From: Phoebastria nigripes
Lineage: Eukaryota; Chordata; Aves; Procellariiformes; Diomedeidae
DNA: 64,000 nt
Assembly: GCA_035582835.1 (NCBI GenBank)
Contig: JAYKAV010003443.1
Coordinates: forward strand, 1,426,588 to 1,490,587
Direction: 5' to 3'
Below the pieces are notes generated by a model. That model was given only the letters and a program-made list of their open reading frames with translations. It did no database searches and had not been told where the DNA came from. Made by a program: the position numbers and the translations under genes. Positions 7,287 to 44,828 of this stretch are shown in pieces (positions within the stretch are counted from its first letter, which is position 1; each line of letters begins with the position of its first letter).

Positions 7287-7382
<96 letters not shown>

Positions 7383-9102: not shown

Positions 9103-9818
9103 CCCACCTACATTTTATACTCCTGCCTGGAGAAGAGAAAGAAAATAAATCCAAGGGGGTCTCAGCATGGGAAGGGGATTAGAGGCAGGCGAGGACAGCT
9201 CAAGCCCAGCTGCAGGGAAGAAAGGGACGGGAACACTTCTGAAGACATCTTGGGGAGGGCTGCGAGCCATGGACTTCGACAGGGACAATCAGCGGCTTCC
9301 AAGAGGAGGTCTCCAAAGCTGGCCTACCACAAGAGAAGGTCACACAACAAAACAGCAGAAGCCAGCCCAGCGATTTTCCCTTTCACACTCAGGGGCGAAC
9401 CACCCACACTCTGCTCCATACCACCGATACTTCATGTGAACTAGACAACGCGTGCTTTCAAGTACACAGCAAAGGAGAGGAAGGAGATGCCAAGGGTGAT
9501 GTTGACCCATCTGAGAGTGCCCNGAGCTCTTAGAAGCACAACAGGACTGCAAACACGCAAGTCACAATGAACAGTCAGGAAAACAACTGATTTCAGAGAT
9601 GCCCATTTTTCTTCACTTTGATGCCCCCTCTTATTTGAAAATGGCAATTCTCCCTGATTTCTGATGTTTTTCGTTTTCATTTCACAAACCTAAGATTACT
9701 AATATTAGATAAATCCAGAGCCATTAGGCGTTCTTTTAATTCTAAGCTATTAGAAAGTCATTTCAATGCAAAGCATTTTACAAGCAAAAGAAAAAAAAAA
9801 AGAATAAAAAACTATACG

Positions 9819-9844
9819 AAAAAAAAAAAAAAAAAAAAAAAAAA

Positions 9845-9883
<39 letters not shown>

Positions 9884-25082: not shown

Positions 25083-25622
25083 ATCATAGAATCATAGAAT
25101 AGTTTGGGTTGGAAGGGACCTTTAAAGGTCATCTAGGCCAACCCCCCTGCCCCCTGGGCAGGGACATCTTCAACTCGATCAGGTTGCTCAGAGCCCCATC
25201 CAACCTGACCTTGAATGTTTCCAGGGATGGGGCATCTACCACCTCTCTGGGCAAGCTGTTCCAGTGTCTCACCACCCTCAGCTTAAAAAAATGTCTTCCT
25301 TATATCTAGTCTAAATCTACCCTCTCTTAGTTTAAAACCATTCCCTCTTGTCCTGTCGCAACAGGCCCTGCTAAAAAGTTTGCTGCCATCTTTCTTATGA
25401 GCCCCCTTTAAGTACTGAAAGGCTGCAATAAGGTCTCCCCGGAGCCTTCTTTTCTCCAGGCTGAACAACCCCAACTCTCTCAGCCGTTCTTCATAGGAGA
25501 GGCGTTCCATCCCTCGATCATTTTTGTGGCCCTCCTCTGGACCCACTCCAACAGGTCCGTGTCTTTCTTATGCTGAGGGCTCCAGAGCTGGATGCAGTAC
25601 TCCAGGCGGGGTCTCACCAGAA
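25083..25622 (-). mobile_element. CR1 LINE, 5'-truncated, minus strand
   Basis: The left edge is a clean CR1 3' terminus on the minus strand: two copies of an ATCATAGA octamer-type repeat (25083-25100), then the well-conserved 3'-UTR stem with GGTTGGAAGGGACC at 25107-25120. Further right the minus strand encodes the C-terminal part of CR1 ORF2. The copy is about 540 bases against a full length of roughly 4.5 kb for the family, so it is strongly 5'-truncated, as most avian CR1 copies are. The 5' break falls near 25622, just before a conserved RPRLEYC motif. The 3' end and coding similarity are good, suggesting a moderately young copy. No target duplication was sought because CR1 rarely leaves a clear one. 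Confidence 0.93.
25283..25622 (-). pseudogene. CR1 ORF2 C-terminal remnant (reverse transcriptase region)
   Basis: Translated on the minus strand, this holds the C-terminal end of a CR1 ORF2 polyprotein, which in intact elements carries endonuclease and reverse transcriptase and copies the element's RNA into the genome. Two blocks are recognisable: [18 protein letters not shown] with VQRRATKMI in one frame (about 25520-25620), and [20 protein letters not shown] with [15 protein letters not shown] in the next frame (about 25290-25510). The frame change between RATKMI and the LSYEERL block, near 25515, points to a one-base deletion. A stop follows KTFF near 25280, in a run of T on the minus strand, probably from a second frameshift. 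The endonuclease domain and the catalytic part of the polymerase are absent. This fragment cannot be active. Confidence 0.9.
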
Positions 25623-33825: not shown

Positions 33826-33890
33826 NNNNNNNNNNNNNNNNNNNNNNNNNNNNNNNNNNNNNNNNNNNNNNNNNNNNNNNNNNNNNNNNN
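33826..33890. other. assembly gap of 65 Ns
   Basis: This is the only multi-base gap in the window. It is flanked on the left by AAGAAAAAAA and on the right by CAAAAAACCCACACACAG, so the missing sequence is probably another A-rich tract that could not be assembled. Open frames that run through the Ns have no meaning. Confidence 0.98.
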
Positions 33891-37664: not shown

Positions 37665-39659
37665 ATCTGGATTTCCAGCTAAAATAACATTTTCTTCATA
37701 GACTACAAATCTTGGAAGAATAATAAAGTGAATTGCAATTGTCCGTGAACACCTTACCATACATTCCAGCAGAACTGCAGGCAACAAATAACTATCCAAG
37801 TATGATTTAAAATCTTGGACCAATCTAGGTTCCCAAACAGAGTTTGACAAATGAGTCCGTGAACAGAGAACATAAATGCCAATGGCTGGGCACTCCAAAT
37901 GTCTCCTCCTCATTTCTTTGAGCTGTGCAATTAAGGCAGACTAGCACAGTCCTTTAATGCCTCTAGCAATATGCAATGACATTTTAAACTGAGTAACACC
38001 TTTCTATCCATCTGTTCATCACACGGGTGAGTCCTATGGCAATTGTGCTAACTTCACAAATGCCTAGAAAGCTCCCAGCTTACAGAGAGATTTTTGTCTT
38101 TAACTAACCTTCATCAATATGGGCTTTAGGGATAGGCATGCTACTTTGATGTAAGCTTACCTTTCCGTCCTAATTAAAGGGAAGGTAGAGAGAGCTGGGC
38201 ATTACTGGTTCCCTGAGGGTTCTGGGGGTTAGTCCTTATCTGTCTGTAGCTCAGAGACCTCCTGCATAGCTGATGGTTTTCTGAACATAGCAGATTGAGC
38301 AGAGAAGCCAAAAGAGAGGAGAATTTGACTGCAAGCACCTCTTTACTTGAACCTTGATATTTTGAACAATGCCTGATGTTATTAAATCTCCACACACATG
38401 CTTATTCTATAAGCAGAGCAATTATCTTTGATCTTTATACACAGCCACACGGCAAAAATAATAAAAAAGGAACCATATCTTGTTTCCTGTTTTCATCTCT
38501 ATGAAACGTAATGCAACAATATGAGTTATGTTTTAGTCTGTTAATAAAAAACACATGAAAAACCTAAGGAAAATTTACTTAAAACNATACTATTTCACTA
38601 TAAAAAAAGCTTTTTTTCTGATAAATGGTAATGTTAAATCCTGTCATAAGATCTTCTTGAGGATTCTTCAGGAACCTCAAATGTTTCCTAATAGGTAGGT
38701 TTGTACTTAAAAACCTGTAAGAAGCAGCAACACCATACCATTGCCATGTTCTCCAAGATACGCGATTTGTTCCAGAATTAGTATTGAAACAGAAGTGCTT
38801 CATGGAACAGAGCTGAACTCCAGTATGCCACNTCTACCTTAGCCACTTAGGATACAAACCTATCCGCTGATCACACAAACAAATTATTGTTATATTAAAG
38901 ACTTTGTAACAGAATAAATATAAGCATTCTTTGTAAATATATGGTATGTTTCACAGGTGGGAAAATAGCGTAACATACTCACCAGAAGATACTATATACG
39001 TAAATTCTTTCAGATACAAAATCTTCTTGATTCTTACATTACTCTTATTTCTAAGGTCTACAGGATTCCACATTCAATAAACGGACTTTTAAAACCAGCT
39101 GCAGTCACACCACAAAGTTCTTCTAAAAAAGCTATTAAAATCTGCTGTTGGTGTGTGGTTGTTAATTAAGGCTCGTTATCTTTATTTACTGTATGCAGTA
39201 TTACCATGCAGACTGCAGGGTCTGCCATGCCACGTACCCACCTACCTACTCTGGGAGGCAGGATGAAGAATTAGGATTCAGGTGTGGAGGTCCACCCCAT
39301 CAGGGAAATTATTCCCGTGATATCCGTGGCCGAGTGAAAGGAATGGCCACCTGTACTGTAAGGCCGTACACTTATTTCGCAGTAGCGCAGGCTATAGTAG
39401 CACTGTTCAAGTGCAGCTGAACTCTGTGGCCAACTATTTTTAAAATGAAAGGCAACTCATGCAAGCTCAAATTTTTGTATTAGCAACCGCATTTCTGAAT
39501 GCACATTCCACTTCTGTTGGACTTGGGGCTCTGAGCAACGGACTCGCTACTGAATTTGCCACAACTTCACAACTTCTCTCCCAATTGCAACAACCCATTT
39601 TGGTGTCACAGCCTCGGGTCTGAACTAATCTGGATAAAGAAGCAGTTCAACTTCTCTGT

Positions 39660-39706
39660 GGAAAAACAAAACAAAAGCAAAAAACAAAACAAAAAATACA
39701 ACCAAC

Positions 39707-39752
<46 letters not shown>

Positions 39753-39780
39753 ACACAAAAAAGAAACCAACCCACACCCA
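39660..39780 (+). repeat. A-rich tract with 43-base poly-A
   Basis: Repeated AAAAC-type units lead into 43 uninterrupted A (39708-39750), then CCACAC and CCAACCC groups. It resembles several other A-run loci in the window that are followed by C-rich groups. No retroposon body is recognised. Confidence 0.85.
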
Positions 39781-44721: not shown

Positions 44722-44800
44722 TTTTTTTTTTTTTTTTTTTTTACATAAGACGGCTTTTTTTTTTTTTTATTTTTTGGTGTTCAGACGTGTTCTTTTCCGA

Positions 44801-44828
<28 letters not shown>
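44722..44828 (-). other. poly-T tract with embedded Illumina adapter relic (artefact)
   Basis: T21, then a 64-base segment at 44740-44803, then a T run reaching 44828. The segment aligns end to end with the standard 6-nt-index Illumina P7/TruSeq read-2 adapter. AAGACGGC (44747-44754) matches the P7 part, GTTCAGACGTGT (44779-44790) and TTCCGATCT (44795-44803) match the read-2 part. The 24 bases between GACGGC and GTTCAG equal the real adapter spacing with a six-base index. By my hand alignment 39 of 58 non-index positions match and 18 of the 19 mismatches are T. On the minus strand this is an insert reading into the adapter and then into poly-A, with decayed base calls. This is not genomic DNA. 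Confidence 0.93.

What the first reader, a model, noticed from the sequence alone, without database searches (positions are those of the whole stretch)
44740..44803. Illumina indexed adapter embedded in the assembly
A 64-base segment follows the P7/TruSeq read-2 adapter with exact spacing: the 24 bases between GACGGC and GTTCAGACGTGT equal nine P7 bases, six index bases and nine read-2 bases. Eighteen of 19 mismatches are T on the plus strand, i.e. A on the minus strand, and T runs flank both sides. This is what an assembler or gap-filler would make from poor-quality reads of a short insert running through the adapter into poly-A. The locus is false sequence and may hide a misjoin.
Basis: partly seen in the sequence, partly recalled or inferred. 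Interest (0 to 1): 0.75.

Follow-up and report, generated by a model that had tools for sequence, protein, structure and literature searches.

The report
Sequencing adapter overwritten on poly-T tract
A 64-base piece of Illumina sequencing adapter is mixed, letter by letter, into what is probably a long natural run of T in this animal genome assembly; it is a technical error, not biology, and one of about a dozen like it in the same assembly.

Summary
Confirmed as an artefact, with the mechanism corrected. Window 44740-44803 matches the TruSeq P7/index/read-2 oligo at 39 of 58 fixed columns; 1500 shuffled oligos reach at most 34, and 26 of the 27 non-T letters at compared columns are the adapter's. 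Two searches of the window's own 1.2-Gb assembly found 11 further degraded copies; the reversed pattern gave 1 and 0. In 10 of these 12 loci a T run ends 0 to +6 bases from the first P7 base. L002 and L003 also hold a clean copy of the same place. There the adapter replaces exactly 64 genomic bases in register, and 14 of 17 and 14 of 14 non-adapter letters are the genome's own. So the false block looks like a consensus mixture of adapter read-through and genomic reads, probably registered by run-off poly-A lying on a genomic poly-A tract. Here the partner would be poly-T itself, which explains why 18 of 19 mismatches are T; failed base calls are not needed. A misjoin is possible but unlikely (L010 is a counter-example). 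The block escapes VecScreen-like screening. No biological interest; modest quality-control value.

The parts
44740..44803 (-). TruSeq P7 + 6-base index + read-2 adapter, mixed with T; the read-through strand is minus (begins AGATCGG at 44803)
   Evidence: 39 of 58 columns
44747..44754 (-). exact P7 block of 8 bases
44764..44769 (-). index columns, reading TTTTTA on plus (TAAAAA on the read strand); original index not recoverable
44779..44790 (-). exact read-2 adapter block of 12 bases
44795..44803 (-). exact adapter block of 9 bases at the insert junction
44722..44742 (.). T21 ending at the P7 end (+3): run-off poly-A of the read, genomic T tract, or both
44803..44828 (.). T26 on the insert side, probably genomic T tract (its first T is also the last adapter letter)
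33826..33890 (.). the only multi-N gap in the window (65 N), inside an A-rich tract; suggests that such tracts are where this assembly breaks

Best explanation
An Illumina read from a short insert ran through the whole 64-base read-2/P7 adapter and then ran off the template into poly-A. The locus is a genomic poly-T tract (poly-A on the read strand). With the insert matching on one side and the run-off A's matching the tract on the other, the read was accepted in local assembly or gap filling, and the consensus was voted column by column between adapter letters and genomic letters. Where the genomic partner is T, every lost adapter letter becomes T. The result replaces 64 genomic bases in place, probably within a T tract of about 107 bases (44722-44828). 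Shown: adapter identity, further copies in the assembly, the T run at the P7 end, and the letter mixture and exact 64-base collinearity in two comparators. Inferred: that run-off poly-A is the anchor, that voting rather than another correction step made the mixture, and that the true tract here is plain T.
For: Adapter match above 1500 shuffled controls. Assembly search with up to 3 mismatches: 11 places (the window's included), none with 0 or 1 mismatch, 6 with 2, 5 with 3; reversed control 0. One search, two positions left free, up to 2 mismatches: 9 places, reversed control 1. T run ending 0 to +6 from the first P7 base in 10 of 12 loci; 240 of 67800 positions of these loci (0.35%) have a T run of 12 or more ending -1 to +6 from them. 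This holds in L006 and L008 too, where only 4 and 3 of 24 P7 letters match. L003: 14 of 14 non-adapter letters equal the clean copy, best of 2575 other 64-mers of the locus 10; L002: 14 of 17, best of 2634 others 13; against 118818 64-mers of the window, both strands, maxima 12 and 13. Downstream sequence resumes exactly 64 bases on in both. Index columns equal the clean genome in 6 of 6 (L002) and 5 of 6 (L003). L012 repeats the all-T pattern: 28 of 29 wrong letters are T.
Against: No clean copy of the window locus was found in the window and the whole-assembly search for its flanks did not complete, so its genomic partner is assumed to be T. One adapter column (44743, A) fits neither, nor does index letter A at 44769. 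Of the three loci with a clean copy of the insert inside their 3 kb, one, L010, fails: no T run of 10 or more at the P7 end, and the clean copy explains only 4 of 17 non-adapter letters, within background. For L002 the margin over chance is thin (14 against 13). L007's wrong letters are mostly A (14 of 19) with no clean copy to test. A single adapter read should be outvoted at ordinary depth; low coverage must be assumed.
Confidence: 0.8

Rival explanations
1. One reading: one or a few poor-quality adapter reads in which failed base calls default to A gave the T letters; no genomic letters are mixed in.
For: 18 of 19 mismatches are A on the read strand. Higher error at read ends is stated in PMC3163567 (passages seen). 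Default-to-A calling is recalled, from no call.
Against: In L002 and L003 the non-adapter letters are mostly the genome's own letters. In the window locus read positions 30-49 keep no adapter letter other than A (3 of 14 compared columns, all A), yet the next 8 letters are exact, which a steady quality decline does not give.
Confidence: 0.14
2. The adapter piece bridges two places that are not adjacent, so the locus hides a misjoin or missing sequence. (This can be true together with either account of the letters.)
For: L010 holds an adapter piece whose insert recurs exactly, 242 bases downstream and out of register. Short N gaps follow the adapter in L002, L003, L007 and L010. Adapter contamination lowers contiguity in microbial assemblies (PMC11536531, abstract and Results read).
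Against: L002 and L003, the two comparators with a T run and a clean copy, are collinear with exactly 64 bases replaced. GC and CpG ratio on both sides of the window locus agree (0.393/0.251 and 0.402/0.255 over about 5 kb), which is weak evidence.
Confidence: 0.17
3. The 64 bases are natural sequence that resembles the adapter by chance or descent.
For: Only 67% identity to the oligo.
Against: Shuffled-adapter control and agreement of 26 of 27 non-T letters; a dozen loci share the same synthetic oligo with different letters lost in each.
Confidence: 0.01

Closest known systems
Illumina adapter contamination of assemblies (for example PMC11536531)
   Same: Untrimmed TruSeq adapter carried into assembled sequence
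   Different: There exact 12-mers were counted and were concentrated at contig ends; here degraded copies lie inside scaffolds, in 10 of 12 cases beside a T run, and in two tested cases are mixed with genomic letters
Gap-filling error at homopolymer tracts (general knowledge, no paper read)
   Same: Lies in a long T tract; the window's only multi-N gap (33826-33890) is also in an A-rich tract
   Different: Filled with reagent-derived letters rather than a wrong repeat length

Membership tests
TruSeq adapter contamination | Adapter letters in the oligo's order and spacing, above chance | tested here: met
   39 of 58, shuffled maximum 34 of 1500 trials; the oligo letters are recalled, but match the fragments quoted in PMC11536531
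TruSeq adapter contamination | Other copies of the same oligo in the same assembly | tested here: met
   11 places at 3 mismatches or fewer, the window's included, reversed control 0
TruSeq adapter contamination | Caught by a standard vector/adapter screen | tested here: not met
   blastn with VecScreen-like settings (recalled): no hit; best +1/-5 segment score 13. NCBI's own tools were not run
Adapter read-through mixed with genomic reads | Non-adapter letters equal the clean genome in register | tested here: inconclusive
   Comparators: L003 14 of 14, L002 14 of 17, L010 4 of 17 fails. Window locus: 18 of 19 if the partner is T, which is assumed
Adapter read-through mixed with genomic reads | Read-level support (adapter reads with run-off poly-A at the locus) | not testable with these tools
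   No raw reads held

The most novel reading that the evidence does not exclude
A recurring and little-noticed class of assembly error: fragments that end exactly one adapter length before a genomic poly-A tract are trapped, because run-off poly-A mimics the tract. Consensus voting then writes a letter-by-letter hybrid of adapter and genome that keeps length and collinearity and escapes contamination screens. Many short-read animal assemblies could carry it beside A/T tracts.
Probability: 0.5. Interest if true: 0.3.

Novelty: not a real feature. Interest (0 to 1): 0.17.

Why it matters
The block should be masked before any use of this locus (primers, motifs, conservation). The practical lesson is that degraded, genome-mixed adapters beside A/T tracts pass an exact or VecScreen-like filter, and that a screen for a diverged adapter next to a T run would find them. 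It has no biological meaning.

Tried and rejected
Rejected: a second degraded adapter at 9786-9880 (contains ATACGA), or at the long tracts near 7287, 9055 and 39662; the scan gave no positive score there. Exact adapter 12-mers elsewhere in the window: one, at 38813, taken as chance. Target-site duplication beside the tract, as for a retroposon tail: exact 11- and 12-mers of the flank edges recur only far away. Rfam: no match in the window at gathering scores. Index identity: the observed TAAAAA is compatible with three of the 12 recalled TruSeq LT indices, but since index columns in L002 and L003 are nearly all genomic this means little. Literature: the searches showed, among the papers listed (only part of the hits), none whose title or opening of the abstract describes run-off poly-A trapping; none of their full texts was read except the parts of two papers named in the report. 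An adapter-contamination paper on the common carp genome that I recall was not found.

Not done: search for the P5-side adapter and for other copies of the window locus's flanks in the assembly, because the search machine did not answer; so the 12 loci are read-2-side copies only and a lower bound.

Full report
The 64 bases at 44740-44803 match the TruSeq indexed adapter at 39 of 58 fixed columns with the six-base index spacing; 18 of 19 mismatches are T and one is A. The next best place on the + strand and the best on the - strand score 29, and 1500 letter-shuffled adapters scanned on both strands reached at most 34. The strongest single statement is that of 27 non-T letters at compared columns, 26 are the adapter's.

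The block would escape ordinary screening. With VecScreen-like settings (recalled, not from a call), blastn found nothing against a small adapter set; the best segment scores 13 at +1/-5. A more permissive short-query search finds 25 bases at 92% (44779-44803). NCBI's own screens were not run.

The window's own assembly was searched: 1,201,434,925 bases in 1961 contigs, with the window at C1907:1426588-1490587. The adapter's last 25 bases, two of them left free, gave 9 places at up to 2 mismatches, reversed control 1. The full 25-mer at up to 3 mismatches gave 11 places, reversed control 0; none had 0 or 1 mismatch, 6 had 2 and 5 had 3. L004 is in the first list only, so 12 different loci were studied (L001 is the window's own). 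The tool calls its counts lower bounds. The absence of near-clean copies suggests that intact adapters were trimmed or masked and that only degraded ones survived; this is inference.

The 12 loci share an anatomy. A T run of 10 or more ends 0 to +6 bases from the first P7 base in 10 of 12. L012 has a longer T run covering the P7 part, and L010 has only seven T's there. As background, 240 of 67800 positions in these loci, both strands, have a T run of at least 12 ending -1 to +6 from them. The lock holds in L006 and L008 although only 4 and 3 of their 24 P7 letters match. This is what run-off poly-A after a full-length adapter predicts; that Illumina reads run into A after the adapter end is recalled, not from a call.

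Two loci show how the letters were made. L002 and L003 carry the flank and T tract twice: once fused to the adapter, and once clean, beyond a run of 73 and of 15 N. In both, the sequence right of the adapter resumes exactly 64 bases after the matching point in the clean copy. The adapter has therefore replaced 64 genomic bases without changing length. Within those columns the letters that are not adapter are mostly the clean genome's: 14 of 14 in L003 (best of 2575 other 64-mers of that locus: 10) and 14 of 17 in L002 (best of 2634: 13). Against 118818 64-mers of the window, both strands, the maxima are 12 and 13. The margin for L002 alone is thin, but the matching place is also the collinear one. 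The index columns equal the clean genome in 6 of 6 (L002) and 5 of 6 (L003). Among columns where adapter and genome differ, L003 keeps 29 adapter and 14 genome letters of 43, and L002 keeps 17 and 14 of 33 with 2 neither. Adapter letters are kept more often near the insert junction than at the P7 end, but the search pattern itself selected for the junction side.

A third locus with a clean copy of its insert, L010, does not fit: the insert recurs 242 bases downstream but out of register, and only 4 of 17 non-adapter letters are explained, as by chance. It has no T run of 10 or more at the P7 end. It may be an ordinary adapter-ended contig. It is a result against making the mechanism universal, and it shows that local misorder does happen. 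For the other nine loci no clean copy was found within the 3 kb held (the matches listed for L001 and L009 are homopolymer only).

Applied to the window locus, the genomic partner would be T. Poly-T explains 18 of 19 non-adapter letters, against at most 14 for 2462 other 64-mers of the locus, and L012 shows the same pattern with 28 of 29 wrong letters T. The partner was chosen after seeing the letters, so this is weaker than L002 and L003. The window holds other long tracts (T96 at 7287-7382, A43 at 39708-39750), so a tract of about 107 T is plausible. The window's only multi-N gap lies in an A-rich tract (33826-33890), which suggests that such tracts break this assembly.

Known background: adapter sequence at the end of short inserts and its difficult removal are described in PMC3163567 (passages seen). 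Adapter contamination of public microbial assemblies, concentrated at contig ends, is described in PMC11536531 (abstract and Results read). The present case differs in being internal, degraded and, in two tested loci, mixed with genome letters. I saw no paper on this variant in the listings, which show only part of the hits.

Noticed in passing
window, 69 single N positions (e.g. 45015, 45183, 45415, 45649): 69 isolated N's, about one per 930 bases; preceded by C in 31 of 69 (15.1 expected, p 2.5e-5), followed by G in 20 of 69 (13.0 expected, p 0.04), one or the other in 46 of 69 (25.3 expected). They look like polymorphic or ambiguous sites, many at CpG, written as N.
   Followed up: partly
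L002 and L003; L007 and L010: The N run after the adapter ends at exactly +173 from the P7 start in both L002 and L003, and at +109 and +110 in L007 and L010, 63-64 bases less; and in both L002 and L003 the clean copy lies 227 bases on. It may betray the gap filler's procedure. Unexplained.
   Followed up: no
window 7287-7382, 9786-9880, 39662-39766: Very long A/T tracts, one of 96 uninterrupted T's; perhaps also wrong in length.
   Followed up: no
window 25084-25100 and L006 right of the adapter: Sequence like the 3' end of avian/reptilian CR1 elements (recalled motif), together with a 1.2-Gb assembly, suggests a bird; the species was not identified.
   Followed up: partly
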